Below, piece by piece: positions 31,163 through 63,515 of a stretch of 64,000 nucleotides of DNA. This stretch comes from Closterium sp. NIES-65 (taxonomy: Eukaryota > Streptophyta > Zygnematophyceae > Desmidiales > Closteriaceae): contig CANXME010002191.1 of assembly GCA_948144175.1 (NCBI GenBank), forward strand, positions 296,001 to 360,000, given 5' to 3'. Made by a program: the position numbers and the translations under genes. A model generated the notes under the pieces. The model had not been told where the DNA came from. It was given only the letters and a program-made list of their open reading frames with translations, and searched no databases. The stretch's first letter is position 1, and every line of letters starts with the position of its first letter.

Positions 31163-34100
31163 ATGGCTGCTGTGACCTCCACCACCGCCACCACCTCGAC
31201 TACCACCACCCCCACCACCCCCACCACTGCCGCTCAGCCGCCTTCCAGCATCCCTCCCGCCATCCACACATGGTACCGACCGAACCCCTTTGTGCCGGGG
31301 ACTGGCGTTTACCCCAGCCTCTTCCATAGCCGTCTTAGACCATCCTCTCTTGCACATGTTCCCCACCATCCTCACTTGCACATGTTCCCCACCATCCTCA
31401 CTTGCACATGTTCCCCACCATCCTCACTTGCACATGTTCCCCACCATCCTCACTTGCACATGTTCCCCACCATCCTCACTTGCACATGTTCCCCACCATC
31501 CTCACTTGCACATGTTCCCCACCATCCTCACTTGCACATGTTCCCCACCATCCTCACTTGCACATGTTCCCCACCATCCTCACTTGCACATGTTCCCCAC
31601 CATCCTTACTTGCACATGTTCCCCACCATCCTCACTTGCACATGTTCCCCACCATCCTCACTTGCACATGTTCCCCACCATCCTCACTTGCACATGTTCC
31701 CCACCATCCTCACTTGCACATGTTCCCCACCATCCTCACTTGCACATGTTCCCCACCATCCTCACTTGCACATGTTCCCCACCATCCTTCACTTGCACAT
31801 GTTCCCCACCATCCTCACTTGCACATGTTCCCCACCATCCTCACTTGCACATGTTCCCCACCATCCTCACTTGCACATGTTCCCCACCATCCTCACTTGC
31901 ACATGTTCCCCACCATCCTCACTTGCACATGTTCCCCACCATCCTCACTTGCACATGTTCCCCACCATCCTCACTTGCACATGTTCCCCACCATCCTCAC
32001 TTGCACATGTTCCCCACCATCCTCACTTGCACATGTTCCCCACCATCCTCACTTGCACATGTTCCCCACCATCCTCACTTGCACATGTTCCCCACCATCC
32101 TCACTTGCACATGTTCCCCACCATCCTCACTTGCACATGTTCCCCACCATCCTCACTTGCACATGTTCCCCACCATCCTCACTTGCACATGTTCCCCACC
32201 ATCCTCACTTGCACATGTTCCCCACCATCCTCACTTGCACATGTTCCCCACCATCCTCACTTGCACATGTTCCCCACCATCCTCACTTGCACATGTTCCC
32301 CACCATCCTCACTTGCACATGTTCCCCACCATCCTCACTTGCACATGTTCCCCACCATCCTCACTTGCACATGTTCCCCACCATCCTCACTTGCACATGT
32401 TCCCCACCATCCTCACTTGCACATGTTCCCCACCATCCTCACTTGCACATGTTCCCCACCATCCTCACTTGCACATGTTCCCCACCATCCTCACTTGCAC
32501 ATGTTCCCCACCATCCTCACTTGCACATGTTCCCCACCATCCTCACTTGCACATGTTCCCCACCATCCTCACTTGCACATGTTCCCCACCATCCTCACTT
32601 GCACATGTTCCCCACCATCCTCACTTGCACATGTTCCCCACCATCCTCACTTGCACATGTTCCCCACCATCCTCACTTGCACATGTTCCCCACCATCCTC
32701 ACTTGCACATGTTCCCCACCATCCTCACTTGCACATGTTCCCCACCATCCTCACTTGCACATGTTCCCCACCATCCTCACTTGCACATGTTCCCCACCAT
32801 CCTCACTTGCACATGTTCCCCACCATCCTCACTTGCACATGTTCCCCACCATCCTCACTTGCACATGTTCCCCACCATCCTCACTTGCACATGTTCCCCA
32901 CCATCCTCACTTGCACATGTTCCCCACCATCCTCACTTGCACATGTTCCCCACCATCCTCACTTGCACATGTTCCCCACCATCCTCACTTGCACATGTTC
33001 CCCACCATCCTCACTTGCACATGTTCCCCACCATCCTCACTTGCACATGTTCCCCACCATCCTCACTTGCACATGTTCCCCACCATCCTCACTTGCACAT
33101 GTTCCCCACCATCCTCACTTGCACATGTTCCCCACCATCCTCACTTGCACATGTTCCCCACCATCCTCACTTGCACATGTTCCCCACCATCCTCACTTGC
33201 ACATGTTCCCCACCATCCTCACTCGCACATGTTCCCCACCATCCTCACTTGCACATGCTCCCCACCATCCTCACTTGCACATGTTCCCCACCATCCTCAC
33301 TTGCACATGTTCCCCACCATCCTCACTTGCACATGTTCCCCACCATCCTCACTTGCACATGTTCCCCACCATCCTCACCCCACACCTTCGCTGTTCTGCA
33401 CCAACAGGCGGACTGGCTCTCTCCCCGCCCCTGACCGCTTTTGAGACGTCTCAAAAGCTCTCTCCACGCCCCTGACCGCTTTTGAGACGTCTCAAAAGCT
33501 CTCTCCACGCCCCTGACCGCTTTTGAGACGTCTCAAAAGCTCTCTCCACGCCCCTGACCGCTTTTGAGACGTCTCAAAAGCTCTCTCCACGCCCCTGACC
33601 GCTTTTGAGACGTCTCAAAAGCTCTCTCCACGCCCCTGACCGCTTTTGAGACGTCTCAAAAGCTCTCTCCACGCCCCTGACCGCTTTTGAGACGTCTCAA
33701 AAGCTCTCTCCACGCCCCTGACCGCTTTTGAGACGTCTCAAAAGCTCTCTCCACGCCCCTGACCGCTTTTGAGACCTATGTTGGATTATACGCTTTGGAC
33801 CTTTTGCGTGTAGCGTTTCTACGCTAGCGTGTACACGCTATACGCTAAACGCTAGCGAAAACGCTATACGCAGCCCAAAATGTTTTCGGGGCAGCCCGCC
33901 TACCCAAAAATTTTCGAAGTGCTCAAAAGCTGCGGAATTGCACGACGAGCAATTCTGTGATCTCAGATTGCACGTCAGGTGGCTGTCGTGGCTGGAAATT
34001 GGAATCGTGTCCTGGAGTCGCGATTACGACCTTCACAATTTGCACGTTCAGAATTGCATGGTCAAGTATGTGGAGTCGCGCAAGCACGTCTCCACAATTC

Positions 34101-37100
34101 AATCACTCCGCTTCACCCCATTCAAACACACTTCATCTATCTAGTCCAACCACTCGTGTCCTCATCCCCGTCACCCAGCATGCTATTTAGCCACTCGTCA
34201 AAATGTCCATCTCATTCGGTTTTCAACTCCCGCTAGCTAGTTAGCGCGCTATGTCTTGTTCTCCACCACCCACATCGCCGTCCGTACAGACAGAGGAGAG
34301 TGCGAGGGTTCCTCCGACTGCGTCACGGGAATACCTTCCCGATGTTAAACACCCTGTGTTTAAAAACTTCAGGCTCATAAAGCGGGAAGAGGGCAAGTCA
34401 CAGCAGTTCGAGTGCAAATACTGCCCCCTTGTCTTCTCTGGTGCCGCCATCCGTTGCGCGCAACACCTGACGTCATGGAAGAACATGAAGCGCCGGGAGG
34501 TGTCACTTTGCAAGAATGCACCGCATGATGTTCGCGTCGAGATGAAGTCCATGTATGAGAAGAAGGCCGCTGATGCAGAGGAAAGGCGTAGATCGACTGA
34601 GGCGGCGATTGCCTCGGTGCTCCCAAGCGGGAAGCGGTCCCGCATAACCGACTATCTCGATGGTGATGCAGCAGGGAAAAAACGCGATGCACATCAGTCG
34701 CTGGTGCTGATGTTTGCGGGATGTCACATCGCGGAGCACATCGTAGACCATCCTCTCTTCGTCAACGCGATGAGGGACGTCGCCCGCGCCGGCGACGGTT
34801 ATGTTCCTCCAGGGCGGAAGTACATCGGCGGTACAGGTCTGCAAGCATGCCGCCGTGGCATCGAAAGCGGGTTGGTGGGCATCAAAGCAAGCTGGAAGAA
34901 GACTGGAGTAACCGTCGCGTCCGACATGATGACGGACAGGGCCGGGAGGCCGCAGGCGAATGTCTTCCTCGTTAACGACGCGGCCGCCGTGCTGCATATG
35001 TGCGTGGACTGCAACATGGAGAAGAAGACGGGGGGTTATATTGCGGGGTTACTGAGGCCCGTCGTGGAGGAGGTGGGTGCGGAGAACATCGTCGCCTTTT
35101 GTATGGACGGGGGCTCCAACTACGCGGGTGCCTGCCGTCAGTTGATTGCAGAATGGCCCCACATCCAGGTTGTCCCTTGTGCGACCCACGTCCTGGATCT
35201 CCTCATGGAGGATGTGGGGAAGCTTGGGTGGGCGAAAAGGGTGGTGGAGCGGACTGGGGAAATGACTTCGTTCGTCCGCAACCACCACTGGACGCGGGGG
35301 TACTTGCGGACGCCGGAGCTGGTGGAGGGGAGCGTGATGCAGGCGTTGAAGCCAGCGGGGACTCGCTTCGGCACCCAGTATATATCGGTGTCCCGTCTTT
35401 GTGCCCTTCGTAACTCCCTTACGCAGATGGTTCTCTCCGACCTGTGGAAAGCTTGGGCGGCGGGGGATGCGGATCGACAGAAAGCAGCAGATGGGTTTGC
35501 CGCGCTGGTACTCGATGCGGCTTGGTGGAAGAGCGCAGAGTTCTTCATGAAGCTCATGAAGCTCCCCTTCATGGCAATGCGGCAGACGGATGGGGAAGCT
35601 AAGGGGATGATGGGGCGACTGTACGACGTTATGCTCCAACTTACCGAGGATGTGGAGGCCATTGTCGAGGCGGATGAGGAGCACCTGTCCAGCACCGACA
35701 AGCAGGCGATCCGCAAAATCCTGAAAGACAGGTGGGACGGGAGTCTTGCATGCGCCATGCACGTGGCGGGACGCATCCTCAACCCCGCCAACCAAGAGGA
35801 GGACATCTTCGGCGGGGATGTGGAATGCACAAGGGTGTTCAAGGCGTTCCTCACCAAGCATGCGGAGTTCCTCACCAATCGGGGGGAAGAGGGGGATGAT
35901 GAGTGCGACTATTTACTCGCATTGGGGGACCAGCTGAGGTCTTACCTTGACCTCAAAGGGAGTTTCGGGATGCCTGAAGCCATTGCACAGAGGGAGAAGG
36001 TAAAGGCGGGCACATACAGCATGGTTAAGTGGTGGCAGTGGAATGGGACGGATGCGCCGCAGCTGGCGTCGCTCGCCATAAAGATTCTCTCGCAGCCCGT
36101 CTCGGCATCTCCGTGTGAGCGTGGATGGGCGAAGTGGGAATCAGTCCACACTGCGCGCCGGAACCGTCTCGGATCCGCTAAGTGCGCGGATTTGGTGTAC
36201 GTCACGCACAACTGGAACGTTGTGCGTGGATGGCACACGCGCCATGATGTTATGCCGCGAGTTGTGCGCGGGAATGAGGTGGAGCCGCCAATCCCCGTTG
36301 GCTACAAGATCGCGGAAGAGATGGAGGAGGAGGAGGGTGAGGACGACGTCTTGGCGGACGAGTATCAGTAGAGGGAGTAGGGGGGTAGAGTAGACTAGGA
36401 AGTAGTGAGGCACCTTGTTCTATGTATGGGGGATAATTTTAACATGGGGGAAAAAAAATTTATGGGTAGGTTTTTTTATGGAGAAACACAACCCACCAGA
36501 AACCCCCCTTGCTGCACTCCCAGAAGGGTTTTCTTCCCTGCCCGAGAAACTTTTTAGCTGCCCGGAAATGCGTATCCTGGATCAGACCCCTCCCGCGTTT
36601 AGCGTATATACGGTGGCGTATATACGACACGCGTATGTACGCCAAACGCGTATAATCCAACATAGTTTGAGACGTCTCAAAAGCTCTCTCCACGCCCCTG
36701 ACCGCTGGGGGTCATGATGCATACCCGATGCTCTGCTCTTCCTTGCCTTGCAGCAATCTCGTTATCGCCTCGCCAGTGCACGCACACACCCCGGCTAACT
36801 AACCGGGACAGCGCCACCACACGCGCTACTGACAGCGTCAGTGTGTGCGCAGCGCACATCGTCTCGCTTGTGTGCAGCGGCATCCCTAGCCCTAGACGCA
36901 CGATGTGAGGAGAGAGAGACGATGTGTGCACATCGTCTCTCTCCTCTCCTCCTCTGCCTACGTCGTCGCCCTGCCCGTCCATTCGACCCCCTTCCCTTCC
37001 CCAGCTACCCCTTTCTTCTCTCCCCTTCCCCCCTTTCATGCAGTGAGCTGCGTGTAACGTGTGGGTCGCCAGAGGAGGCGCTCATTCTGCGCAACACACT

Positions 37101-38842
37101 CGCAGTCGACCCCGAGGTGAGGCTTCAAGGGGTCAGCCAGGTGACGCCTTCCCACGCCACACCTACCTAAGGTGGGTCGCCAGAGGAGGCGCTCATTCTG
37201 CGCAACACACTTGCAGTCGACCCCGAGGTGGGGTGAGGGTATACGGTGATGTGCGGTGGGGTGAGGGTATACGGTGATGTGCGGTGGGGTGAGGGTATAC
37301 GGTGATGTGCGGTGGGGTGAGGGTATACGGTGATGTGCGGTGGGGTGAGGGTATACGGTGATGTGCGGTGTTCCCATGCCAACCAGTTTAGGGAGATGGC
37401 GTGGGGCCTTTTCACGCCAATGACCCCCTGATTTGACGCTTTCTCACGCTCCTGTAAGGCTTTTCCTTGCCATCTGTCATTCGGGAGGTCCACACCTCTG
37501 GTTGTGCTGTTTCCTTTCACCACAACTCTGCTTTTGAGTCGACTCAAAAGCACCTCTGGCTGTGCTGTTTCCTTTCACCACAACTCTTTCCACTACCAAC
37601 CGTCAATAGCCATCACCGACCAACCCCAACCATCACCAACCACTCTCACTTCATTTGCTTGCCATCTCTCCGTGTCCCCCATCACCACTGGCAGCTGCAA
37701 CCAGACAAGCTCGTGCGGGTGATCACAGTCCATGATACCCACGTCTCAGTGTACGCCCCATCCCAATCTTCCACAACCAGTTGCAATTACGGACTGCCGT
37801 TGTAAAGTGTGGGCTCTTATCGTCCTGTAGTGCGTGTGCAGCTCTTTTGTGCATCCCCTTTGCTCATCTCTGCCTGTTTCCGTGTGTGCTGCACTCTTCA
37901 CTCTGTGTATTGCCTCGTGCCGTGCTGCTTCTGCCTGTCTTCTCTATGCATGGGGGATGCCTGCCTGGCGTTCTCCCTCGACTGCTTGTAATCGTTCTCG
38001 AAGGACTTGGAATGTTGTTTTGAAGAGGCTAGTGCGACTATTCCACAGATGTTGCATACACCCCGTACGCGTAAAAAGGGTATTTTTGAGACGCTTGCCA
38101 TATATGCCACACACACACCACAGTTTTCATTGACTCGCCTTCGACCAATCTCTCCTTTTATGAGGCTCCTCACCTCAACAGTCACTCTTCCCTCCCCCAC
38201 AAACCCCTGCCCTCCCTCCCTCCCTCTGCAGCTCCTTCTCGTGTGCCGATGCTCGTCTCCTGCGAGCAGCCTTCAATGCCTTCATGGACTCGCTCATCCT
38301 CACATGCCCACCACCCAACCCCCCTTCCCTCCTCTCTGCAGCTCCTTCCCTTGTCCCGATGCTCGTCTGCAGCGAGCGGCTTTTAACGCCTTCATGGACT
38401 CGCTCATCCTCTCATTCCAACCACCATCCCACCCCCCCACCCTCCTCGGCAGCTCTTTCTCGTGCCCAGACGCCCGTCTTCTGCGCGCAGCTTTCAACGC
38501 CTTCATGGACTCACTCATCCTCGCTCCCCCATGCCATCCCTTTCTATCCCAACATGCACCACTGACCCCCTCTGCAGCTCCTTCTCGTGCCCTGATGCTC
38601 GTCTCCTGCGGGCATGCCTTCATGGACTCGCTCATCCTCGCTGCCTGCACCATTTCCCTAGGCACCTCAAAGTCCTATCCCACCATCCTTCCTCCCCCTC
38701 CTTTTGCAGCTCCTTCTCGTGCCCCGACGCTCGTCTGCTGCGGGCGGCCTTCAACGCCTTCATGGACTCACTCATCCTCGCTGCTCGCACCATCGAGGCA
38801 TTTGGCCCGTCTCCGCCCATGCAACAACCATGCCTGCAATGA
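31163..38842 (+). CDS. PCC1: EKC/KEOPS complex subunit PCC1 (LAGE3 family)
   Basis: Spliced model 31163-31272, 37044-37116, 37695-37750, 38710-38842 gives 123 residues in one frame. After an Ala/Thr/Pro-rich N-terminus it reads IHTCELRVTCGSPEEALI, LAVDPELQPDKLVRVITV, VSVSFSCPDARLLRAAFN and AFMDSLILAARTIEAFG. This is the whole Pcc1/LAGE3 fold (strand, helix, strands, helix). Pcc1 is the dimerisation subunit of KEOPS, which makes t6A on tRNA. The exon 1 and exon 3 donors are both GTAC, weaker than the rest, so exon 1 and the third junction are less sure; an alternative third donor is GTAAAG at 37802. Intron 1 is 5.8 kb and holds satellites and a hAT transposon. Confidence 0.8.
31350..33376. repeat. 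26-bp satellite array, about 78 copies
   Basis: Unit CTTGCACATGTTCCCCACCA plus TCCTCA, very homogeneous. There is one single-base insertion near 31787, and variants appear only at the right edge. Because 26 is not a multiple of 3 and the unit contains no stop, all three forward frames are open and encode the same 26-residue cycle. I do not regard these frames as genes. It lies in PCC1 intron 1. Confidence 0.95.
33411..33775. repeat. 41-bp array with 18-bp palindrome in each unit
   Basis: Nine copies (the last split by the hAT element) of a 41-bp unit made of a 23-bp spacer (GCTCTCTCCACGCCCCTGAC plus CGC) and the palindrome TTTTGAGACGTCTCAAAA. The palindromes start at 33439, 33480, 33521, 33562, 33603, 33644, 33685 and 33726. 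The array resumes at 36666 after the transposon and ends by 36710. Variation is confined to the first unit. Confidence 0.95.
33776..36665 (+). mobile_element. Complete hAT DNA transposon
   Basis: 2890 bp with perfect 18-bp terminal inverted repeats (CTATGTTGGATTATACGC at 33776-33793; complement at 36648-36665) and an 8-bp target duplication TTTGAGAC (33768-33775 and 36666-36673), the hAT hallmark. Subterminal regions carry repeated TACGCTA-type motifs. It encodes one uninterrupted transposase. It inserted inside the palindrome of the 41-bp array. Perfect ends and an open transposase suggest it may still be active. Confidence 0.96.
34251..36371 (+). CDS. hAT transposase (BED finger, DUF659, dimerisation domain)
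   Basis: 706 residues from the ATG at 34251. The N-terminus has a BED-type zinc finger (FECKYCPLVFSGAAIRCAQH). The middle matches the DUF659/hAT core (DMMTDRAGRPQANVFLVND; FCMDGGSNYAGACRQL; PCATHVLDLLMEDVGK; ELVEGSVMQALKPAGTRF). The C-terminus is the hAT dimerisation region (SLAIKILSQPVSASPCERGW, NRLGSAKCADLVYV) and a very acidic tail. It cuts and pastes its own element in the nucleus. Length, domain order and lack of stops fit a functional enzyme. No intron is visible. Confidence 0.93.
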   Translation: MSCSPPPTSPSVQTEESARVPPTASREYLPDVKHPVFKNFRLIKREEGKSQQFECKYCPLVFSGAAIRCAQHLTSWKNMKRREVSLCKNAPHDVRVEMKSMYEKKAADAEERRRSTEAAIASVLPSGKRSRITDYLDGDAAGKKRDAHQSLVLMFAGCHIAEHIVDHPLFVNAMRDVARAGDGYVPPGRKYIGGTGLQACRRGIESGLVGIKASWKKTGVTVASDMMTDRAGRPQANVFLVNDAAAVLHMCVDCNMEKKTGGYIAGLLRPVVEEVGAENIVAFCMDGGSNYAGACRQLIAEWPHIQVVPCATHVLDLLMEDVGKLGWAKRVVERTGEMTSFVRNHHWTRGYLRTPELVEGSVMQALKPAGTRFGTQYISVSRLCALRNSLTQMVLSDLWKAWAAGDADRQKAADGFAALVLDAAWWKSAEFFMKLMKLPFMAMRQTDGEAKGMMGRLYDVMLQLTEDVEAIVEADEEHLSSTDKQAIRKILKDRWDGSLACAMHVAGRILNPANQEEDIFGGDVECTRVFKAFLTKHAEFLTNRGEEGDDECDYLLALGDQLRSYLDLKGSFGMPEAIAQREKVKAGTYSMVKWWQWNGTDAPQLASLAIKILSQPVSASPCERGWAKWESVHTARRNRLGSAKCADLVYVTHNWNVVRGWHTRHDVMPRVVRGNEVEPPIPVGYKIAEEMEEEEGEDDVLADEYQ
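37160..37224 (+). repeat. Donor-side partial copy of PCC1 exon 2
   Basis: Repeats the end of exon 2 (GGGTCGCCAGAGGAGGCGCT through GACCCCGAG) and its GT, just downstream of the intact exon (37044-37116). The true donor is GAG|GTGAGG; the copy has GAG|GTGGGG. Confidence 0.85.
37225..37370. repeat. 28-bp array after the PCC1 exon 2 copy
   Basis: Five units of GGGGTGAGGGTATACGGTGA plus TGTGCGGT. Each unit repeats the bases that follow the donor of the duplicated exon end, including a GGTGAG core. Confidence 0.85.
37488..37590. repeat. 39-bp direct repeat split by palindrome
   Basis: Two copies of cacctctggytgtgctgttt...caccacaactct flank CTTTTGAGTCGACTCAAAAG (37531-37550) in PCC1 intron 2. Confidence 0.9.
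38225..38645 (+). repeat. Four partial copies of the last PCC1 exon
   Basis: Copies with acceptor and exon start, each coding SF(S/P)C(A/P)DARL(L/Q)RAAFNAFMDSLIL, begin near 38231, 38341, 38455 and 38579. They lie upstream of the complete exon (38710). The fourth has lost 8 bp and is out of frame. None carries the ARTIEAFG end or stop codon. Confidence 0.92.
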
Positions 38843-40029
38843 TTCCCGTGTATGGCCCAACGCAGCCCATCCCATCCCATCCCATCCCATCCCATCCCAT
38901 CCCTCGCCGTCCAATCCAAGCCCATCCCATCTCAATGCAATGCTGTTTCCTCCCCGTAGGTTACCATCACGACACTTGTAGAAATTGAGCACTCTCCCTT
39001 GCCATGCATTCAACCTGCTTTTCTCCTCCCTTACTTCCTTTCACTCTCCCTCTCGCTTTTTCTCCCTTATCCCAACACCACTCCTGATTCTCACTCCTCC
39101 CTCACTTGCCTCACTTCCCCATTTGGGATTTCTTCACTCCACAAACGCTCTCTTTCCTTGCTGCCCTTGATCCAAGGCTCCGAGGCACATCATTCCACCC
39201 AGTATCTTGCATATGCTAGATGACCCTGAACGCATACGCATGCACCGATGCATCATGCACCCATATACTCATGTACCCACATACTCACGCACCCATGCAC
39301 CCAGTTAGCCCTGCACCCACATAGTACCCACGCACCAATGTAACCACGCACCCATGAAACCATGCACCCATGAAGCCACGCACCCATGAAACCACGCACC
39401 CATGAACCCACGCATCCATGAAACCACGCACCCATGCACTCATACAACCATACACCCACATACCCATGCATCCACATACCCATGCATCCACATACCCATG
39501 TGCACATGTGTACATGCGCATTTGTAGGCATGCATCCATGCAGATATGCACCCATGTACCTATGCACACATGTACCGACCAGTGCACTCATGTACCCATG
39601 CACACATGTAACCCCATGCAGGCATGCGGTGCAGGTTCCAAGTATCATCATGCCTAATACCTGTATCCCCAAAAGCAGTTAGGATTGTTCCAGTTGTTAG
39701 AAGAAAACATGTCCCTCTGGGATGCCCTGCTTCAATTTTTGCTGGATTCTGTTCTGCCCCAGCTGAGGTTCTAAATCAACCCTTGCATCAGAATGATTCC
39801 TTTGAAGAAACAGCGCTTGATGACCCTTCGATGCAAGCATACGGTATTGAGGGTTCCTTCCACACAAAAAAAAAACTCAGATGACAAGCATTGATCCTCT
39901 GTGTTTAAGTGCTGTGGTGCAATCTTCCTACCAAGCTGCATTGCTTTCATGGAGATGACAAAACATAGATTTTGTAATCTAATTGGAAATTACAAGCCTT
40001 ACTCATAGAGCAAAGCTACAAGTATAAAC
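38843..40029. other. Intergenic with simple repeats, no gene seen
   Basis: Contains a short CCCAT run at 38866-38898 and a degenerate CATGCACCCATGAAACCACG-type minisatellite at about 39230-39620. The latter opens frames on the minus strand coding His/Gly/Met/Trp repeats only. The rest (39.65-40.03 kb) is AT-richer and holds no supported exon. Confidence 0.6.
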
Positions 40030-43400: not shown

Positions 43401-43535
43401 GCATCAAGCGATGCGTGCATGTCACTCACATGCCCTCCACCCACAGCACCCGCGCTCGCCCTCTCCGCTGCTCCCCGCGCACCTCTCCCCTGCCCTTCGC
43501 CCTGCCCCTCCTCTCCGTTTCATCATCTCCCCCAT

Positions 43536-43610
43536 CCCCTCCCATTCTCTCCCATCCCCTCCCATTCTCTCCCATCCCCTCCCATTCTCTCCCATCCCCT
43601 CCCATTCTCC
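43536..43610. repeat. 20-bp array CCCATTCTCTCCCATCCCCT
   Basis: Four tandem units in a pyrimidine-rich stretch. Further on, at 43.93-44.10 kb, a 'tgccatgtgtgtg...cactgaata' minisatellite occurs. Confidence 0.8.
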
Positions 43611-44925: not shown

Positions 44926-44945
44926 CAAGCCCATGTGCCCATGTA

Positions 44946-48547: not shown

Positions 48548-51500
48548 TCAAGTGGGACCAAATGCAGACCAGAAGGACCCTGCAGTGGCAGCCTGCTGCT
48601 GTTGCTGCTGCCGTGTGATATAGTCCACAACATGAGGCACGGACCCCATGACCACCACCCTGCCGCCATCCATGTATGCCGCCCCGTCTGCAAACTGTAG
48701 CTCCTCCAGCCGATGCGTCACCCACAGCGCTGTCACCCTCCGCCCCTGCCGCCCCGTCCTACTGCTGCTGCCTGCACTTCTGTCTGTGCTGCTGCTGTCT
48801 GTGCTTATGTGTGCGGTGTTGCTGCTGCCTGGGGAGCTGCCCGACACCACATTGCGCACTGCCTTGATGACTGCATACTGGCATTGGAGATGGGGAGCAG
48901 AGGGGGGTACAGCACGAGAGAAGCGGAGAGAAAGGGGCATGCTGACACATGGTGCAGTAACGACGCATGCCACATGCTGCACTGACGCATGCCACATGCT
49001 GCAGTGATGCATGCCACATGCTGCAGTGACGCTCGATAGACAGACTCCGCAATTGGAGCCATACAGGCCCCTGGCAACCAAAGTAAAAGAATTTCAAGTT
49101 TTGATAGCCTCTGAACGCAGAGAGAGGCACACAGACATTCCGAATGGTCCCCCTTTGAGAATGCCCATGGGGGAAAGCACGCAGGAAGCACAAAGGAGTT
49201 GGCAACAAGGAGGCGGAGGAGGGGAAGCAGGAAGCAGCGGACCTGGGGGGCGGAGTCGAGGAAGGTGGTGAGCTCGTCCAGCAGCAGCGTGAGTGTGAGG
49301 GGATGCTCCGCCAAAGCACAGGGGAGTTGGCAGGGAGGAAGCAACAGGGACTGACCTGGTCAGCGGCTATGTTGCGCCTGACGCCCTGGAAGGGCAGCGT
49401 CCAGCGTCCGGACGTGAATGTCCGGACGCTGGACGCGTCAAATCGGTTTGACGCTGGACGTTCGGGGAAAAAAAATTCGGGCAGCCCGAAAAAAAATTAT
49501 CCTGCACGAAATTGACTCGCAATTTCATTGCGACCAGAATTGACGATGAAATTGCCATCTGGGGGCCGCGTTTTTGACCTAAAAAACGCAACCCTCACTT
49601 ATTCCCCCCCACACATTTGTACCCATCCACATCTACCTCTCCCAACCTGGTCGACCCCCAACTAAACTAGAGAACCAGATCTAGGTCGACATTACCCAGA
49701 TCTGTTTCTCTCGACATTGTCAAGCATTCCTTACACTAGAATTCGCCAGTCACGCTACTAAGCCTTCCTAGCTAAAATTAGGTTAAGGCGATTAAGATAT
49801 CATGTCAACTCCTAGTCCCGCCAGTCATTCTGTTAGTGCCTCCACGCCTTCTGGAGATTTTCAGGATTTTCTGGATATTATGGAGTATTTATAACTATAG
49901 GTGACAAATGTTAACTTCTTGCATTCTAACCCCTGCGTATCCTTACTAGGCAGGTTTTTTTACCCCTGCCCGGAAAACATTTTTGCCCTGCCCGGACTAG
50001 CGTCAAGCGGGCGTCCAGGGCAGAGGGCACCGGGCGTCAAGCGTCTGGACGCCCCGTCCAGACGCCAGCGTCAAAAACGCCTGACGCGTCAGGCGCAACA
50101 TAGGTCAGCGGAGTCAAGGAAGGTGGTGAGCTCGTCCAGAAGGAGCGTGAGTGAATCCCCCACCAGTGCTGCTTGTGTGACATTCAGGAATTCTCAAGAT
50201 TGGCACAAGGAGTGCTGGCAGGGAGGACTAGGCAAGGATGACTTTTGAGGCGCCTCAAAAGCTGGCAGGGAGGACTAGGCAAGGATGACTTTTGAGGCGC
50301 CTCAAAAGCTGGCAGGGAGGACTAGGCAAGGATGAAGCGGCAGGGAGGGGGTGGCAGGGCTAGGACTGACCTGGTCAGCGGAGTCAAGGAAGGTGGTGAG
50401 CTCGTCCAGCAGCAGCGTGTGTGAATCCTCCGCCAGTGCCCCGGCAATTGCCACCCGCTGCTTCTGCCCCCCACTCAGCGTCGACACCAGGCGCTAGAGG
50501 GGAGACGAACAATGAGGGTAACAGAGAGAAACGGGTAATTGTCAGCGGATGGTTTTGAAGGAGGAGAGATGGACAGTCGTGTGAGTGGCATGGCATGGCA
50601 TGGCATGGCATGGCATGGCATGGCATGGCATGGCATGGCATGGCACGCAATGCTTCTGCACACTGATAGAAACAAAGTGGGCCCCCACCGAGGAGCAAAG
50701 GGGACGCTATATCTGCTGCCAATGCCCCTGCGATGTGCACCCCTCTCCTCCATTTCTCCGCGTCAACCATAACTGTCCACTGTTTCGACTCTCACACGTT
50801 CGTAGGTTGACTTTTTAAGACGACTACAAGCCAGCTCACCCCCTCAACCAGCCATGACCACCGTTTGTGCCGTGATATGTTCCATTGGTCGTACTTACCG
50901 CTGCTCTCCGCCACTTTCCCAAACCTCCCTCACCTGCCCATACTCCTCTCACCTGCCCATAATCCTCTCACTCACCTGCCCACACTCCTCTCACTCACCT
51001 GCCCACACTCCTCTCACTCACCTGCCCACACTCCTCTCACTCACCTGCCCACACTCCTCTCACTCACCTGCCCACACTCCTCTCATTCACCTGCCCACAC
51101 TGCATGGGATGGGAGGGTGGGAGGGCAGCACTCACCTGCCCATACTCCGCCATGCCAACGGCCTCCAGCACCTGCCCGTACTGCTCCCGCTCACCTGCCC
51201 AATACTGCACAGGTAGACGGGCGGGGCGGCCCTCACCTGGCCTGGTCGTCACGCCCTCACCTGCCCATACTCCGCCATGCCAGCGGCCTCCAGGGCCTCT
51301 GCCAAGCGCCGCTGCATACCTTTCAGCCTCCCCTCGCCAGCACCAGCAGAAGCACCGCGCACAGCACACTCCTCTCACCTGCCCACACTCCTCTCACCTG
51401 CCCACACTCCTCTCACCTGCCCACACTCCTCTCACCTGCCCACACTCCTCTCACCTGCCCACACTCCTCTCACCTGCCCACACTCCTCTCACCTGCCCAC

Positions 51501-52732: not shown

Positions 52733-53383
52733 AATGCGACAGCGCGTACACGACACGATGCTGATGCTTCCTGGTTTAGCCGCACATTTCCCTAGGGCAT
52801 TCACGAGTCTTAGAGTACGCGCTGTAGGGTGTGTAGGGAGTTCAAAATGGGTAACATATAAATAAGTGAAACCCATCTTAGCATAGTTTTCAAATCAGTG
52901 GAGCCATATATTCGCTTATCCGTCGTTTGACGCGGTTCAGTGCGTTGAACCACATTTAAGAGCGGTTATTTTATTTTAACGCATTAAACCATCGCGGATC
53001 AGTTTGAACCGAGAGGAAAACTCACGCCCTGAATACCCCAGCTGACTTGCGCTCCAACAGCGAAGAACCCACGGCTCTTTCTTGCTTGGCACATGAACTC
53101 GCGCCTCGCGTTCCAGGTGGTAGCCCGCAGAGCATTTAGTTCTTCGTTCCAGAACCGGGTGACCGCGCATTCGTGTTACCTCCGAGCGTCTATCGCACCC
53201 GCAAGTCGTGCCGATTGTTATTAGGACCTGCTTTAGGAACCACTGAGGAGCCATCTTCGTCGCTGGTTCCCACGACCGACAGTGAAGGTCACCTCGTCTG
53301 CCTCGCTTTTTTCAGTGGTTAGGGCTCGTTTCGCTCTTCGTTTCTATCCGCCTCGCATTCTCGCCGTGCGTTAGCGTCCCGCC
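52733..53383. promoter_or_regulatory. Divergent promoter region between ABC gene and MFAP1
   Basis: The two start codons point away from each other across 651 bp, so both promoters and 5' UTRs must lie here. The middle is AT-richer (52.84-52.98 kb). I see no certain TATA box. Confidence 0.5.
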
Positions 53384-56011: not shown

Positions 56012-56526
56012 GAGGGGCACCAGGCGTGCTGCTTTGCGGCGCCCCTCACCCCGGCTACGTCAGGGAGATGCTGGCCATGCCCAGGCTGGGCATGCTTGCT
56101 TGGTTGGATTGCTTGATGTGTTTTGTTTTGTTTTTCCTCTATGGCGCTGCTGCTCCTTGTTGTAGCTGGCAATTGGTTGCTGAGGTTAAAGGCTATCTGA
56201 TTGCGTCTTCACTCCTACCCGAGTGGAGCTTCCTACCTAAAGCAGCTCACAGCTTTTTTTGCGCACTTGCAGCACCACAAGCATGTGTCTCTCGGGAATG
56301 AAATGGATAGCATCGTTCTGCACATTGTGAGATGGATCAACAAGCTAATCTCACATCTCAATAGCAATGTGTCCCTAACCTGGGTGTAGCAGTGTTAGAA
56401 AGGGGAGAGCACCGTATGAGTGCACTACGAATAGGTTGTGCGCGTAGTGAGCAAGCTAAGTAATCGGCACAGGATGAGCCGGAGCGCAAGGCGCTAGAGC
56501 CAAGAGCCAAGAGGCAAGAGGAGGCG
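56012..56526. other. Convergent 3' region of MFAP1 and CASPL
   Basis: No gene. The 3' UTRs of the two converging genes must share this 515 bp. Confidence 0.6.
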
Positions 56527-59416
56527 CTAGTCCTCGAACCAGCTGACAACGGCTCGCGTGGCAGAGGCAATGAGGGAGGGGATGAGGACGAAAAAGGTGA
56601 TGAATGCCATTGCCGTGGCAGCCTTGGTGCGCGCACAGAAGCTGGAGAACAGCCCCATCTGCATGGCGGGCAGGAGCCGTGGGGGGGAAGCAGCGGGGCA
56701 TGCAGGCAGGCAGGGGAGAGCAGGGCATGAGGTTTGGGTGAAAGCACTGATGGTGGCTGGTGGCCTTGGTGCGCGCACAGAAGCTGGAGAACAGCCCCAT
56801 CTGTGCTCAGACAGTGAAGTATGCAGGAGCAGTGATGTACGCATGCCCAAAAGCAAGGGAGAGCTTGCAGCAAGTCGGGTTAAGGAGGAAAGTGTGGAAG
56901 ATGGGGGTGTGTGTGTGGGAAATCACTCCTGAGAACGTGATTTCGAGACGTCTCAAAACACTCCTTCTTTCACGGGGTGTGTGTGTGGGAGTTGACTTTT
57001 GAGTCGACTCAAAAGTCAACGGGGGGTGTGTGTGTGGGAAATCACTTGTGAGAACGTGCTTTCTGTGCAGGAGGAAGGCATCGTGCAGCTGATGACGCAA
57101 AAGTGTGTGATGTCTCTAGTTTTTCGGCCTGCCTCAAAGCCAATCAGAGGGCATGGGGGAAAGCACCTGGAACTACCTCCCTGCACCACTCCCCACCCAC
57201 CTGGCAGTACCCTGGCTGCACCATCCCTGATCCCTTGTCGGCAAAGCTGGTGAGACCCGCTGCAGCAGAGGCACCGGCCAGAGCGATCCATGCCACGAGC
57301 TGATTGGGGGACAGGGGGGTACACAGTGGATGGATGGGGCACAGGGAGTGGGGATGAATCCGCAGGTTACAGGCAATGCCAGGCAACTTTCGAGTCACCT
57401 CGCTGCAGCAGAGGCGCCAACCAGAGCAATCCATGCCACGAGCTGCTTGCAGCACAGGGGGGACGCGGTGGAGAGATGGGGCACAGGGAGAGGGCACCTG
57501 AAAGTTGCTGATTGGTGCAATGACTTATGAGGCGGCTCAACAGGCGCTGCCGCAGAGGCGCCGGCCAGAGCTATCCATGCCACCAGCTGCTCGAGCCTTA
57601 AAGCAGAGCAGGGCGAGCAATGGACGTATGTGGCACACACATTGAGTGGGTGGGAGCAGCGGGTGAACCATCCCATCCGGCACCCGTGCACAAGGGTGGT
57701 TTGAGAGTACGTGAAAACTCGTGTTTGTGCCGTGCAGCACTGGGATGCACAGGCAGCCGTGCAGCACTGGGATGCACAGGCAACGCCGCAACGCTTTCTT
57801 ATGAGCCTCAAAAAGCAGCTGGTGACGCCAGGCACACGTGCGTATGGGTGGTTTGCGGGTTGAGGGTTGAAGTCATATGAGGTGTGTGGGTGCGTATGGG
57901 TGGTTTGCGGGTTGAGGGTTGAAGTCATATGAGGTGTGTGGGTGCGTATGGGTGGTTTGCGGGTTGAGGGTTGAAGTCATATGAGGTGTGTGGGTGCGTA
58001 TGGGTGGTTTGCGGGTTGAGGGTTGAAGTCATATGAGGTGTGTGGGTGCGTATGGGTGGTTTGCGGGTTGAGGGTTGAAGTCATATGAGGTGTGTGGGTG
58101 CGTATGGGTGGTTTGCGGGTTGAGGGTTGAAGTCATATGAGGTGTGTGGGTGCGTATGGGTGGCGACCAGCAGAGGAGGATAGTGTGAGGAGGCCGCTAT
58201 GAGGTGAGTGGTGTAGGGAACGCGGGCAGCTCGGCACGCGAGGCAGTAGTGGGCACAACACGTTGCAGGACAAGCAAGAGGGATGGCAGACACTGACAAT
58301 GTCGAGTAGGGCGAAGAGCGTGAACAAGTGCATAAGGTGTGTATTTCATTCCCGGTACATCAAAAGAGCACTGTAGGGCGAGGGGAAGGGAGAGCCGGCA
58401 CTGACGAAGTCGAGGAGGGCAAAGAGAGAGATGCGCCACTTGCGGGGCATTAGTGCTTCAAGTTCATCATGTGTGCATTTTATTATGGAGCGAGGGGGAA
58501 GGGCGGCAGGCAGGGCACTGACGAAGTCGAGGAGCGCGAAGAGAGTGATGCGCCACTTGCGGGTCATGAGGCGACCAATGGAGTGCAGCAGATGGGCGAG
58601 GCACCACGCTGCCACCGCTGTCATTGCCGCCACCATGAATATGAACGCCTGTTTGACGGGGTGGGTGCGAGGGAGAGGGTGGGGGGTGAGGAATGAGGGG
58701 GGTGGGGAGCTTGAGCCGTCTCAAAAGTCGCCAAGCACCGTGCTGCTACTGATGTCATTGCTGCGACTCTGACGATGAACGCCTGCGTGGTGGGGTGTAG
58801 GAAGGAAGGAGGGGGGCGAGAGGGGACATTTGAGATGATTAAAGTAGGTGTCATGTCAAGCACCATGCTGCTACTGCCGTCATCGCTGCTACTGCCGTCA
58901 TTGCTGCTACTGCGGTCATTGCTGCTACTGCGGTCATTGCTGCTACTGCCGTCATTGCTGCTACTGCCGTCATTGCTGCTACTGCGGTCATTGCTGCTAC
59001 TGCCGTCATTGCTGCTACTGCGGGGTGGGGGAAGGAGGTAGAGGGGGAGAGAAAAGATAATACGTTTCAAAAGGCGTGAGACACCACGCTGCCATTCCAC
59101 GGCTGCCAGTGCCACCACCACAGCTGCCATAGCTGTCGCTGCCATTCAACGGCTGAGAGGTGGAGGAACAAGTAGAGAGGGGAGAGTGAGGGAGGAGAGG
59201 ATTGCGGGAAGGGAGGAGTGAGGAGCGGGGAAACGGAGCTTGAGACGTCTCAAAGAACACGAGGCACAATGCTGCCACGGCTGCCATTCATGGTCGCGGC
59301 ATTCATGGCATGCCCCGACCATGAGCATGAATGCCTGCGAGGTGGGGAAAGGAGGTAGGGAGGCGGGAGTGAGGGGGGTGGAATACGAGGGAGTTGAGAC
59401 GGTGCGTAAGCCCCCA

Positions 59417-59467
<51 letters not shown>

Positions 59468-60293
59468 CTGCCAGCCACCCACTGCTGCCATGGCTGTGAC
59501 GATTGAGATGAACGCTTGACCTGAGGGGGGAGGAGGAGGGAGAGGGGGGAGCGGGAGTGAGGGGGGTGTAATACAGACCTGCCCATACACACACACACAC
59601 ACACACACCTGTCACCCCTGTCATGGCCGGACAATTGAGATGACCGCCTGAAGGGGGAGGAGGGAGGAGGGAAGTCGGGGGGGAGGTAGAGGAGGAAGGG
59701 GGACGAGGTGAAGCGGAGGCAGTGGGGATGGTGTTGTGGTGTGGTGCAGGCGGCCGTGCTACCATGGGCGTCAGCATGCAGATGAGCTTGTGGCGGATGG
59801 GGCGCGCATGGGTGCGCATGGGTGCGCATGGGTGCGTGCATGGTGGTGGAGTGGAGTATCCACGTTGACTTCATGGCAATGCATGGTGGCGATTAGCAAG
59901 GCAGGCAGCAGAGGTAGATGGATGGATGGATGGATAACGCTGTGATGGCGGCGTCCACCTGTGACGAAGCAACACATCGCCTGCACATACTATGCAGCAG
60001 TGCTCACCTGGCAGCACCGTGCTGACGTGGCAGAAGCAGCACAGTACGCACCTGGTAGTATTGGAAGTACATGCCGTTGGTACTTAGTGCAGGCATATCA
60101 GTCAGGGCAATTACAGCTGTAGCCAGCTGCAGCAGCACGGACGCACCTGGTAGTATTGGAAGTACATGCCATTGGCACTGGAAGCAGTCATGACAGCCAG
60201 CGCAATGATAGCCGTCGCCAGCTGTAGCAGCCGCCAGAAGATGGTCTGCCCGCGCGCAAAGATCCGAGTCTCGCCGCCCAGCCCGCCGCCCAT
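56527..60293 (-). CDS. CASP-like membrane protein (MARVEL family)
   Basis: Four exons (60293-60147, 58648-58523, 57299-57201, 56658-56527) join in phase to 167 residues, a usual length for CASP-like proteins. There are four hydrophobic helices: FWRLLQLATAIIALAVM, FIFMVAAMTAVAAWCLA, ITLFALLDFLVAWIALAGAS and MAFITFFVLIPSLIASAT. The Arg in helix 1 and Asp in helix 3 are the conserved family pair, and the Cys in SSFCARTKAA before helix 4 also fits. Family members form plasma-membrane scaffolds. All four exons have partial copies nearby. Non-coding or alternative first exons may lie at 60449-60530 (donor GTAAGG) and 60739-60959 (a Pro/Ser-rich frame with donor GTGAGT). Confidence 0.88.
56760..56812 (-). 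repeat. Acceptor-side copy of CASPL exon 4
   Basis: CACAG|ATGGGGCTGTTCTCCAGC and on to KA, then divergent. Upstream (on the minus strand) of the true exon start at 56658. Confidence 0.88.
56890..57070. repeat. Tandem 'ggggtgtgtgtgtggga' block with two palindromes
   Basis: Three copies of a 25-45-bp block are separated by TTTCGAGACGTCTCAAAA (56941-56958) and by a 30-bp perfect palindrome centred on GTCGAC (56991-57020). In CASPL intron 3. Confidence 0.9.
57400..57590 (-). repeat. Two acceptor-side copies of CASPL exon 3
   Basis: Both read LVAWIAL(V/A)GASAAA after an AG (starts 57442 and 57586) and then break off. The intact exon starts at 57299. Confidence 0.92.
57845..58165. repeat. 52-bp array, six units
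   Basis: Almost perfect units of 'gggttgaagtcatatgaggt' plus 'gtgtgggtgcgtatgggtgg' and 'tttgcgggttga' in CASPL intron 2. Confidence 0.95.
58298..58454 (-). repeat. Two donor-side copies of CASPL exon 2
   Basis: PRKWRISLFALLDF|GTCAGT (58454-58406) and FTLFALLDI|GTCAGT (58326-58298), downstream of the intact exon 2 end at 58523. Confidence 0.93.
58853..59030. repeat. 18-bp array derived from CASPL exon 2
   Basis: About nine units of (minus strand) GCAATGACNGCAGTAGCA, matching the exon 2 bases that code AMTAVA. Confidence 0.9.
59418..59466. repeat. (CA)n microsatellite
   Basis: About 23 dinucleotides. A second (CA)12 run is at 59585-59608. Both are in CASPL intron 1. Confidence 0.95.
60050..60130 (-). 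repeat. Donor-side copy of CASPL exon 1
   Basis: LQLATAVIALTDMPALSTNG then MYFQYYQ|GTGCGT, directly downstream of the intact exon 1 end at 60147. Confidence 0.93.
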
Positions 60294-60529
60294 CTCCGCC
60301 AGCTTCTCCGAACGAGCTGGGTGGGAGGGATGGTGGAGTGAGACAAAGCGGCAAGCAGGAGGGCGGAGGAGTTGGGTGGGAGGAGCGAGCGGGGCACAAG
60401 GGCCTAGTGCAGAGAGTCGTGTGCCTTGCCTTGGAGCAACTCTCCTTACCTTGGGGCGCTGTGTGTGTTCACGCTGCTGCCTCTCTGCATGCTCAGAGAG
60501 GTTATCATCGTGAGCGGTGAGTAAGGCAC

Positions 60530-60620
60530 TGTAGACTTGTTTTGAGACGTCTCGAAACAACTCTTTATCACAATGTTATAATCGTGAGCAGTGAGGCACT
60601 GTACACTGTACACTGCTCAC
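60530..60620. repeat. Direct repeat split by palindrome upstream of CASPL
   Basis: On the minus strand, ACAGTGCCTCACTGCTCACG (60600 side) and ACAGTGCCTTACTCACCGCT (60525 side) flank TTTCGAGACGTCTCAAAA (60540-60557). Confidence 0.85.
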
Positions 60621-60959
60621 ACCACGGGCCACACCCAACGCCACCAACCGCTGCTGGCCTGCCATGTCAGCAGTGGCAGCTCTTGCGTTACTTGGTTACC
60701 AGGCTACAAGCCCCACTGTGCTTGATGCTAACTCACCCGCGGGGCGACTTGCGGGGCGACTCGCGGGGCGACCAGCGGTGGCGCGTGGGGGTGACCCTCC
60801 TACAGCGCCGCGTGGCGGCGAGCCTGCTGACGTGGACAGCGGAATGGGTCCACGTGGCGGCGAGCCTGCTGACGTGGAGAGCGGAACGGGTCCACTTGGC
60901 TGCTGTCCCCCTTCCTCCAGTATCCCTCGCCGCCCTAGTGACGTGTCATACGCCGCCAT

Positions 60960-61940
60960 GTCCGCCGCACCGTGTTATTCCTCTCCGCTCTCCGCGCTAG
61001 CCTGCTACCACTCTCGAGAATTGCTAAACGCGATACAAGGCTGCTACCGCTGTCACGCAAGATGCGACGGCTCAGTGAAGCGACGGCTCAGCGAGAAAAC
61101 AGCAGTGAAGCGGAACGATTGAGGTAAAGCGAACGGGAAAAGAGGTGCGAGTAGCGAAAGGGTGTTGTTGATGGAGGCTCAACACGGGGACGGCTGGAAA
61201 CGGGACGAGAGGGTGGAGTGGAGGCATGGCATACGACGGACGGAGGCAGGTGCGCGCAGGCAGGCACGCGGAGGCAGACACGACACGCGAGTCGTGAGAT
61301 GCGAGCGTGACCGCATCGGCAGGGGAGACAAGAGGCGGTAGGGCGCACGGCGGTGTGGCACGAGGCGGCGCGCGGAGGGTGCGAGCGAGCAAAAATTCTT
61401 TGAAGAAGCTTTCGCTCCCCAAGCTCCCGTCGAGCATCGCGCGGGTCGCCGCGGAGGCAGAAGGTGCGGGGAGGTCGCGCAGGTAGCCGGGGAGGGGGCA
61501 CCGCACAGCATCCTTGCGGGAAACGAGCAGGCAGAAGGTGCGGGGAGGTGCGCAGATACGGCGGAAGGCGGGAAGGTCAATCGGCGGGGGAGTGCGAGCG
61601 GGATGGGCAGGACGCCAGCTGGAGCAGTAGTGAGTGGGTGCCGCGTGGTGGGCGGGAGAGGCAGCGCGTTGCGCCGTGCGGGGTCGCCGAGACGTGCATG
61701 TTGCTCTGCCGTGCCCCCCTTGCGGTGACTCCCAGAATCGCCGAGACGACGCCCTGCGACCTTCCTGGTGGACGACAATGCGAATAAAAAGCCGTCTATA
61801 GCGAGCATCAGAATCTGGCTCCTATTAGCATTTCGGTTATTATTAGTAAAAACACAAATAAAAAACATCAAAATACACTATCCATTCATGGATTTTAACG
61901 ATATTTACAGATTTCACAACAGCATGAAAGGCCATTTTAT
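60960..61940. other. Spacer between CASPL and UBA gene
   Basis: A minus-strand frame around 61.18-61.51 kb (with SATRAMLDGSLGSESFFKEF) could be part of an exon, but I found no partner exon. 61.78-61.93 kb is AT-rich and probably the 3' UTR of the UBA gene; AATAAA on the minus strand overlaps its stop codon. Confidence 0.4.
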
Positions 61941-63212
61941 TCAGGCGACTAGCAGCTGCAGCGCCCGGTCGCGGTCGTTGCCACAGAGGGCCAGACAGCC
62001 CGCCACGGCCACCGGGTCAAAACCCATCTCTCTTAGCAACGTGTATGCATTGCAGAAATCCACCACCTGGGGGCATGGGGGCACAAGAAGGGTGGGGGGG
62101 AGAGGGACAGAAAAGGAAGACGGGCGAACGCGGGGGGAAAGGGGACAAGGGGAGGAAAGGGGGACACAGTGGGGAGGGAAGGGGGGACACGGGGGGGCAA
62201 CATGGGGGACATGGGTGGCCGTGTAAAAACCCATTTCTCTCAGCAACGTTTATGACTAACAGAAGAATATCACCTGGCAGCACGGATGGCACGGGGCCAT
62301 GGGTGGCATGCGATGGGACAGTGGTCCCCATTCAGCAAGGCAGGCATGGTGCTGACAAGACAACCAGGGCACGTGACAGCATTCTCACTCTCATCGCATT
62401 GCTGCCAGAAAATGAAGAAGCTTCAGTGGTTTCTGTAATGTGTGTGGTCAGAATACCACCAAGATCATCCCCCACTCCAAAAGCATGCACTCGTGGGAGG
62501 AAGGAAGGTAATGTGCGAGAGCGAGAGGAATGGCGAGAACCCTGTTCCAAATGGTATTCCTTGTTACCTGTGAGTGAGAGTCGCCGTGCATGGTGAGTGC
62601 CATGATGACTGCCTCTCTGTTCATGCCCATTTGTATGTACTTGCTGGCCCGTGGGTCCACCTGATGGGGAGGAAGTGGGGAGGGCAAGGGCAGGGGACAG
62701 GGGGAGTGGACTCTCCTGCCTCTCTGTCCGTAACCCCACCTCTCACTTCACCGCCTCTGATAACCACTATGCAACTGGCGCCCTCGCCCCACGCCCACAC
62801 CTCTCGCTTCAAGGACACTCTGGTGCGCTCGTGCAGCGCCGACGCCTTGGACAGCAGCTGTCTCTGTGATAACAGTCAACTCAGAACACACACAGCTAAC
62901 CAGTGTGCAACTAGCCGCCCTCGCCCCACGTCCCCTCCCCCCCACCTCGCGCTTCACGGCCACGCTGGTGCGCTGGTGCAGTGCGGAAGCCTCGGACAGC
63001 AGCTGCTTCTGTGGCTTGTGTCAACTCAGAACACACAAGGCTAACATAACCACTATGCAACTAGCTGTCTTCACAGGCCCCACCTCGCGCTTCACAGCCA
63101 CGCTGGTGCGCTGGCGCAGTGCCGACGCCTCAGACAGCAGCTGCTTCTCCACGTCGAAGTCAAACGCCGCTGCGCTCACTGCCACTGGTTGTACGGGCGC
63201 TAGTGGGGGAGG
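61941..63212 (-). CDS. UBA-domain protein, C-terminal exons (5' part outside window)
   Basis: Three exons (63212-63084, 62660-62568, 62066-61941) join in phase to the last 115 residues. They are a Pro-rich start and a helical FDFDVEKQLLSEASALRQRT segment, a UBA-like unit (VDPRASKYIQMGMNREAVIM, ALTMHGDSHSQ) and a final UBA domain (YTLLREMGFDPVAVAGCLAL, CGNDRDRALQLLVA). UBA domains bind ubiquitin. Two in tandem at the C-terminus recall UBAP1-type ESCRT proteins, but the homology is not proven. The upstream exons lie beyond 64 kb or are hidden in the repeats. All three exons' neighbours carry partial copies. Confidence 0.78.
62222..62275 (-). repeat. Acceptor-side copy of the last UBA exon
   Basis: Decayed copy: GCCAG|GTGATATTCTTCTGTTA...GTTGCTGAGAGAAATGGGTT, upstream of the intact exon at 62066. 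Confidence 0.75.
62800..63000 (-). repeat. Two donor-side copies of the UBA gene's 43-codon exon
   Basis: Both read KQLLSEAS/RQLLSKAS then SALHQRTSVAVKRE|GT and SALHERTRVSLKRE|GT (62998-62944 and 62870-62806), downstream of the intact exon end at 63084. Confidence 0.92.
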
Positions 63213-63250
63213 CTGCATGGAGAAGAGGGTAGGGTGGAGACGGAAGGTTA

Positions 63251-63515
63251 TTGAGTCGACTCAAACGTCACCCTAGACAGCAGCTGCTTCTCCACGTAGA
63301 AGTCAAACGCCGCTGCGCTCACCGGCACCGCCTGCACTGGCGCTAGCGGGGGCGGCTGTGAGGAGGGCGCACAGGGTGGAGAATATAGGTATTTGAATCG
63401 ACTCAAGCGTCACCTCGGACGGAAGCAGGTGCTTCTCTTTTCCACGTCAAAGTCAAACGCCGCTGCTCGCTGCCATCACCTGCACTAGAGCTAGCCGGGG
63501 GGGCTGTCAGTGGGT
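63251..63515 (-). repeat. Two acceptor-side copies of the UBA gene's 43-codon exon
   Basis: Each begins after CACAG or GACAG with the Pro-rich start, continues through SAAAFDF and VEKQLL, and then ends at TTGAGTCGACTCAA (63251-63264) or TTTGAATCGACTCAAG (63392-63407). Upstream of the intact exon start at 63212. Confidence 0.92.

What the first reader, a model, noticed from the sequence alone, without database searches (positions are those of the whole stretch)
33439..63407. Palindrome family TTTTGAG-nCGn'-CTCAAAA at the junctions of tandem duplicates
Perfect or near-perfect palindromes occur at 33439 (eight in an array), 37532, 50243, 50290, 56941, 56997, 59239, 60540 and 63251, with decayed forms at 57524, 58710 and 63392. 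Three centres occur (ACGT, TCGA, GCGC), always self-complementary, so the dyad is kept while the bases change. Nearly every one sits exactly between two copies of a direct repeat of 23 to about 100 bp, including exon echoes. It could be a minute mobile element with long target duplications, or a hairpin that triggers tandem duplication during replication or repair.
Basis: partly seen in the sequence, partly recalled or inferred. Interest (0 to 1): 0.88.

Follow-up and report, generated by a model that had tools for sequence, protein, structure and literature searches.

The report
Tiny palindromic retroelement insertions duplicating DNA
In an alga related to land plants, a Penelope-type jumping gene appears to have left some 30,000 tiny mirror-image scraps of its own front end, and most of those sampled lie between two copies of neighbouring host DNA, which makes a little-understood insertion mechanism open to direct study.

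Summary
The window is Closterium nuclear DNA. The palindrome occurs 24,964 times genome-wide with centre nCGn and 30,327 times with any centre; reversed-pattern controls give 0 and 4. In 61 sampled sites, 54 lie between direct repeats (X) at score 30 or more, against 37 of 150 random positions. A 99% identical copy of the region on contig C21 has a single X, no palindrome and no nested hAT at the site of the 33439 array, as an empty site would.

The palindrome is not an independent element. It is the 5' end of the pseudo-LTR (pLTR) of Penelope-like retroelements (PLEs), overlapping the end of their reverse-transcriptase gene. PLE copies at 45-100% protein identity keep it at the same codons through compensating changes, giving all four centres seen genome-wide: TCGA, ACGT, GCGC, AATT. 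Insertions keep the palindrome centre and vary at the outer arms.

Best reading: ultra-short, head-to-head PLE insertions with long target duplications. Most likely both ends of a break are extended on PLE RNA and joined through self-complementary cDNA ends; that joining step is inferred, not shown.

The parts
33416..33766 (.). Site A: array of 23-bp X (GCTCTCTCC[C/A]CGCCCCTGACCGC) alternating with 8 intact palindromes, centre ACGT
33767..33775 (.). Site A: left half of the ninth palindrome, cut by the hAT insertion
33776..36665 (+). hAT element nested in the ninth palindrome (later event, not part of the mechanism); transposase ORF 34251-36371
36666..36705 (.). Site A: rest of the ninth palindrome and the last X
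37493..37529 (.). Site B: left X, 37 bp
37530..37550 (.). Site B: palindrome insertion, centre TCGA
37551..37587 (.). Site B: right X (36/37 identical)
50214..50335 (.). Site C: X-P-X-P-X, X 28 bp, palindromes 50242-50260 and 50289-50307, centre GCGC
56941..56974 (+). Site D1: palindrome with a long right arm, 97% identical over 34 bp to the pLTR start of the PLE in L186
56991..57020 (.). Site D2: 30-bp perfect palindrome, centre TCGA, between two copies of GGGGTGTGTGTGTGGGA
57525..57542 (.). Site E: decayed palindrome next to a partial exon copy
58709..58726 (.). Site F: decayed palindrome before a partial exon copy
59238..59255 (.). Site G: near-palindrome, flanking repeat not convincing
60537..60560 (.). 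Site H: 24-bp palindrome with one mismatch, centre ACGT
63128..63530 (.). Sites I and J: three degenerate copies of a piece running from inside an exon into an intron, with palindromes at 63249 and 63391 (TCGA) between them

Best explanation
The palindromes are ultra-short retrotransposition products of Penelope-like elements (PLEs). In these PLEs the pseudo-LTR begins with a self-complementary sequence, TTTTGAG + four-base self-complementary centre + CTCAAAA, which is also the codons for L-x-x-L-K near the end of the RT gene. Shown: the palindrome is the pLTR 5' end in two PLE families; it is kept by compensating changes across PLE families; insertions lie between copies of the target; their centre is constant and their outer arms vary; arm-target junctions share more bases with the pLTR than expected. 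Inferred: at a host break with widely spaced nicks, the 3' ends of both strands anneal by a few bases to PLE RNA near its 5' end and are extended to the RNA end, so that each cDNA ends in the palindrome; the two self-complementary cDNA ends anneal and are sealed; filling of the stagger gives X-P-X. Later slippage or unequal exchange amplifies some sites to (X-P)n-X.
For: About 25,000-30,000 exact copies, controls 0 and 4. 54 of 61 sites flanked by X against 37 of 150 random positions. n and n+1 rule and single-X copy on C21. Palindrome = start of the pLTR in L182 and L186 and head-to-head in L179. Of 21 readable PLE RT ends, 18 have the exact core with self-complementary centre and one more (L204) is changed on both arms. 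Covarying codons AGT-CGA, AGA-CGT or ATT, AGG-CGC. Site D1 carries 34 bp of pLTR. Junction overlap: 22 ends, mean 0.91 against 0.30; 5 of 22 with two or more bases against 5.0% (P 0.004); 10 of 30 with 8 further ends. A PLE direct-repeat flank of 29 bp, about 34 with one indel, in L182. Published: a PLE protein cleaves and extends both strands and starts inside its RNA (PMC11167929, main text read); rotifer PLE pLTRs have 5' palindromes and head-to-head copies (PMC3846280, passages and Discussion).
Against: 31 of 61 TCGA-family ends did not match the L179 pLTR up to X and were left out of the junction count. 7 of 61 sites lack a strong X. A deletion between outer X copies would leave the same single-X structure on C21. 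For site B and L158 only occupied copies were found. PLE classification rests on homology to one RT + GIY-YIG protein (28% identity) and on architecture; Pfam RT scores are below the curated cut-off. No transcript data.
Confidence: 0.85

Rival explanations
1. Self-priming within the same PLE origin: one target end primes cDNA, its 3' end folds back on its own palindrome and copies itself outward, and the far end joins the other side of the break. PMC3846280 proposes self-priming for rotifer PLEs.
For: Both arms agree in sequence, as one copied from the other would. Palindromes at head-to-head junctions are read so in PMC3846280. The 20-mers fold as 8-bp hairpins with a 4-base loop.
Against: A hairpin loop need not be self-complementary, yet the centre is in 18 of 19 exact cores among 21 PLE copies. 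Microhomology appears on both sides. Neither point is decisive.
Confidence: 0.35
2. Repair filler: ordinary break repair fills a staggered break and captures scraps of abundant PLE cDNA as filler, without PLE protein acting at the site.
For: X varies widely (13-145 bp); no endonuclease domain was found in the PLE ORFs; duplicated breaks with filler are known in plants (recalled, not read).
Against: Inserts centre on the pLTR 5' palindrome, though copies were found by that palindrome, so this is partly ascertained; junction microhomology fits extension from target ends.
Confidence: 0.2
3. A minute autonomous or MITE-like DNA element with terminal inverted repeats.
For: Palindromic, dispersed, flanked by target duplications.
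Against: Outer ends vary and differ between sides while the centre is constant, the reverse of TIR elements; duplications have no fixed length; the sequence is part of PLEs.
Confidence: 0.04
4. Hairpin first: a palindrome already in place provokes tandem duplication of its neighbour.
For: Palindromes lie at duplication junctions.
Against: No palindrome lies outside the outer X copies at sites A, B, C and the C21 copy of site A has no palindrome.
Confidence: 0.04

Closest known systems
Penelope-like elements of the rotifer Adineta vaga (PMC3846280; passages and Discussion read)
   Same: pLTR with a palindrome at its 5' end (18 bp and 38 bp there), head-to-head inverted copies joined at the palindrome, partial tandems
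   Different: There few copies, target duplications of 8-10 bp in the passages seen, GIY-YIG endonuclease present; here tens of thousands of palindrome-only insertions with X of 13-145 bp and no endonuclease found
PAc Penelope of Anolis (PMC11167929; abstract and main text read)
   Same: PLE protein that extends both DNA strands and starts reverse transcription inside its RNA
   Different: Reported start sites are not homologous to the cut DNA; here junctions show slight microhomology. Its GIY-YIG domain was not found here
Short palindromic repeats of Volvox and Fusarium organelle DNA (PMC2670323, PMC7218506; passages) and Podospora ultra-short mitochondrial elements (recalled)
   Same: Very short dispersed palindromes or short elements held to be mobile
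   Different: Organelle DNA, no source retroelement shown in the passages seen, no long flanking duplication described there
LINE twin priming (recalled, not read)
   Same: Both target ends prime on one RNA and give an inverted insertion
   Different: LINEs keep the RNA 3' end; here only the 5' tip is kept

Membership tests
Penelope-like element (source) | PLE-type reverse transcriptase | tested here: met
   L186 ORF2 matches P0144, which has RVT_1 and GIY-YIG (E 4.9e-28, 28% identity); Pfam RVT_1 itself is below cut-off; weak telomerase RT match, E 0.097. No tree was built.
Penelope-like element (source) | pLTRs and tandem or partial-tandem copies | tested here: met
   L186: 155-576 and 3780-4201, 99.3% over 422 bp, cut by the end of the stretch; units about 3.5-3.7 kb apart
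Penelope-like element (source) | Head-to-head inverted pLTR with palindrome at the junction | tested here: met
   L179: 434-bp inverted arms, 99.8% identical
Penelope-like element (source) | GIY-YIG endonuclease (canonical clade; endonuclease-deficient PLEs exist, PMC3846280) | tested here: not met
   No Pfam match in the L179, L182 and L186 pieces
Penelope-like element (source) | Hammerhead ribozyme | tested here: inconclusive
   No Rfam hammerhead in L179 at E 1 or better; a CTGAAGA...CGAAAC stretch resembles one by eye only (recalled motif)
PLE-derived insertion (the palindromes) | Sequence identical to the pLTR 5' end | tested here: met
PLE-derived insertion (the palindromes) | Target duplication; empty allele with one target copy | tested here: met
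   54 of 61; C21 copy of site A, where loss by recombination between X copies is not excluded; two other loci had occupied copies only
TIR transposon or MITE | Conserved outer ends and fixed short target duplication | tested here: not met
   Outer ends variable, X 13-145 bp
LINE | Insertion keeps the RNA 3' end | tested here: not met
   Inserts consist of the palindrome and short arms at the pLTR 5' end

The most novel reading that the evidence does not exclude
The pLTR palindrome is a dedicated, selectively maintained sticky end: cDNAs grown from the two sides of a break each end in a self-complementary sequence, anneal, and seal it. A telomerase-like RT without its own endonuclease would thus act as a break-patching machine that has written tens of thousands of palindromic patches and host tandem duplications, exon pieces included, into one algal genome.
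Probability: 0.3. Interest if true: 0.92.

Novelty: new variant of a known kind. Interest (0 to 1): 0.82.

Why it matters
How PLEs, relatives of telomerase, complete an insertion is unsettled. A palindrome kept by compensating change at the pLTR 5' end, with tens of thousands of short products whose junctions can be read base by base, makes that step testable. It also offers a source for tandem duplications, partial exon copies among them, and a class of insertion that could pass for a simple tandem repeat in annotation.

Tried and rejected
Hairpin-first duplication and TIR/MITE element: see rivals. Artefact: unlikely, since copies decay, differ in centre and one is nested by a hAT.

Discarded: the first microhomology count (mean 1.93), because L156-L175 were chosen by a pattern that includes the arm; one search repeats it without that bias. 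Motif search in the 120 copia proteins found nothing. Rfam found no hammerhead. A guessed C21 stretch for site C did not match the window. Joined-flank searches for L158 and site B returned occupied copies only; the one for L165 did not complete. A notebook entry counts 11 TCGA copies; the output shows 10, and the report uses that.
Full report
Setting. The window is nuclear DNA of a Closterium (zygnematophyte alga): the 120 listed relatives of its copia polymerase ORF, out of 8,000 scored, are all Closterium proteins. The assembly searched as G000 has 874,075,685 bases in 2,400 contigs; the window is C1893:296001-360000.

The observation. TTTTGAGNCGNCTCAAAA with up to 3 mismatches occurs 19 times in 64 kb against 0.17 expected; 15 of the 20 perfect palindromes of 14 bp or more in the window belong to it. 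The array at 33439 has nine palindromes and ten X copies; a hAT element with an 8-bp duplication sits inside the ninth. Genome-wide there are 24,964 exact copies with centre nCGn and 30,327 with any centre, about one per 29 kb; the same patterns read backwards give 0 and 4. In 20 stretches of 10 kb chosen because they hold copies, 52 of 55 centres are self-complementary: TCGA 26, ACGT 13, GCGC 10, AATT 3; the other three (TTGA, AATC, ACAT) each differ by one base from such a centre. Chance controls: 120 matches in prokaryote genomes have self-complementary centres in 28 cases, and of 117 with flanks none has a flanking-repeat score of 36 or more and one has 30; 11 viral matches have 2 and no such repeat.

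Flanking repeats. With an alignment anchored to the palindrome, 54 of 61 sites score 30 or more against 37 of 150 random positions from the longer stretches. The 61 are one per array: 38 from the first sample, 19 from a second sample of 20 stretches chosen by the longer pattern GGTGAC...GTCACC, and 4 from the window; L163 was left out for short flanks, and L167 and L173 are near-copies. The background is high because this genome is rich in tandem arrays.

Order of events. At sites A, B, C and, in degenerate form, I/J, palindromes number one less than the X copies and none lies outside them. A palindrome that came first and was duplicated with its neighbour should also lie at an outer edge. A second copy of this region, 99% identical, lies on contig C21. 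There the flanks of site A meet across one X of 24 bp, without palindrome or hAT. The simplest reading is an empty site; loss by recombination between the outermost X copies would look the same and is not excluded. Site B is occupied in both copies, as is locus L158. At site C an upstream intron paralogue lacks the palindrome.

What the palindrome is. Copies with longer arms led to the source. The 27-mer CCATAGTAACGAGGTGACTTTTGAGTC has 52 matches. L179 holds a head-to-head element whose 364-aa open frame reads as a reverse transcriptase, and there the palindrome encodes LLSRLK near the end. L182 holds a longer, broken copy between direct repeats of 29 bp (about 34 with one indel) in what reads as a gypsy polymerase gene; its first pLTR starts at the palindrome. 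For the ACGT family, L186 has a 700-aa RT frame, and its two pLTR copies (155-576 and 3780-4201, the second cut by the end of the stretch; 99.3% identical) both start at the palindrome. The RT frame of L186 matches P0144, a protein with RT and GIY-YIG domains, the architecture of Penelope-like elements. No GIY-YIG domain was found in the Closterium pieces and Pfam RT scores are below cut-off. The L179 RT has 114 matches at 41-100% identity (112 of 381 candidates scored), some in head-to-tail series.

Conservation. The ends of 20 RT matches were fetched and read with L179, L182 and L186. Of the 23, L206 does not reach the place. Of the 21 in the codon table (L182 not included), 18 have the exact core with a self-complementary centre (TCGA 9, ACGT 4, GCGC 2, AATT 3), L204 has TTTTAAGTCGACTTAAAA, changed on both arms, L203 has one broken pair and L198 is broken. 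Some of these are near-copies, so they are not 21 independent cases. Codons covary: AGT with CGA (10 of 10), AGA with CGT (4) or ATT (3), AGG with CGC (2) or, in the two damaged copies, TGC or CAC. The lysine codon is AAA in 21 of 21, while the lysine of the nearby GPLV[LI]K is AAG in 9 and AAA in 8. Of 24 RT proteins scanned, a matching peptide in this context was seen only in two Closterium ones; several others end before this point. So the nucleic-acid palindrome itself appears to be maintained, and the centres of the insertions are the centres of the PLEs. In the window, site D1 carries 34 bp of the L186 pLTR start at 97%.

Mechanism. The centre is constant while the outer edge varies and differs between the two sides: the reverse of a transposon with terminal inverted repeats, and what two cDNAs would give if they start at different places and both stop at the RNA 5' end. 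If target ends prime on the RNA, X should share bases with the pLTR at the junction. In 22 TCGA-family ends not selected by arm sequence the overlap averages 0.91 bases against 0.30 in shifted register, and 5 of 22 have two or more against 5.0% (P 0.004). With 8 ends of at least 6 arm bases from the second sample it is 10 of 30. In the ACGT family 5 ends gave 2 such cases. A purified PLE protein is reported to cleave and extend both strands and to start inside its RNA (PMC11167929). Rotifer PLE pLTRs have 5' palindromes and head-to-head copies, read there as self-priming (PMC3846280). Self-priming remains possible here; a self-complementary centre, which a hairpin loop does not need, favours pairing between two strands. 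Long variable X with no endonuclease found suggests use of breaks with widely spaced nicks. These last steps are inference.

Novelty. Ten searches of an open-access library listed no paper that I recognised as describing such insertions; only a few of the papers were opened and subscription papers are not held. The Closterium genome paper (PMC10407611, passages only) has no occurrence of 'palindrom'. PLEs and their 5' palindromes are known. The mass of palindrome-centred insertions with long target duplications, and the codon covariation, seem to be new.

Noticed in passing
G000 contigs C927, C969, C2347, C614, C714: PLE RT copies repeat at near-constant spacing (about 6.0 or 8.9 kb) in long head-to-tail series; C969 is only 57.5 kb long. 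Could be telomeric or centromeric arrays, or assembly of a multicopy tract.
   Followed up: no
window 49367-50103: hAT-type MITE with 18-bp terminal inverted repeats and 8-bp duplication GTCAGCGG, sitting in one of three copies of an ABC-transporter exon
   Followed up: partly
window 38210-38522, 60035-60231, 62940-63200: Tandem exon or intron duplications without a recognisable palindrome; 63 tandem-repeat clusters were found in the window and 6 hold the palindrome. Older insertions may have lost it, or another process adds duplications.
   Followed up: partly
G000:C21 around 1867400-1870500 (L211): A near-identical second copy of part of the window; C21 also carries a second copy of the L158 locus, otherwise on C1792. 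Looks like uncollapsed haplotypes or recent duplication.
   Followed up: partly
L148:9019, L157, L163: Some insertions carry head-to-tail repeats of the half-element (17-nt unit [A/T]CGAGGTGACTTTTGAG, or a 27-nt unit), as if a template had been copied more than once
   Followed up: no
window 31339-33378: 26-bp tandem array of about 78 copies directly upstream of site A; alignments suggest it is much shorter in the C21 copy
   Followed up: no
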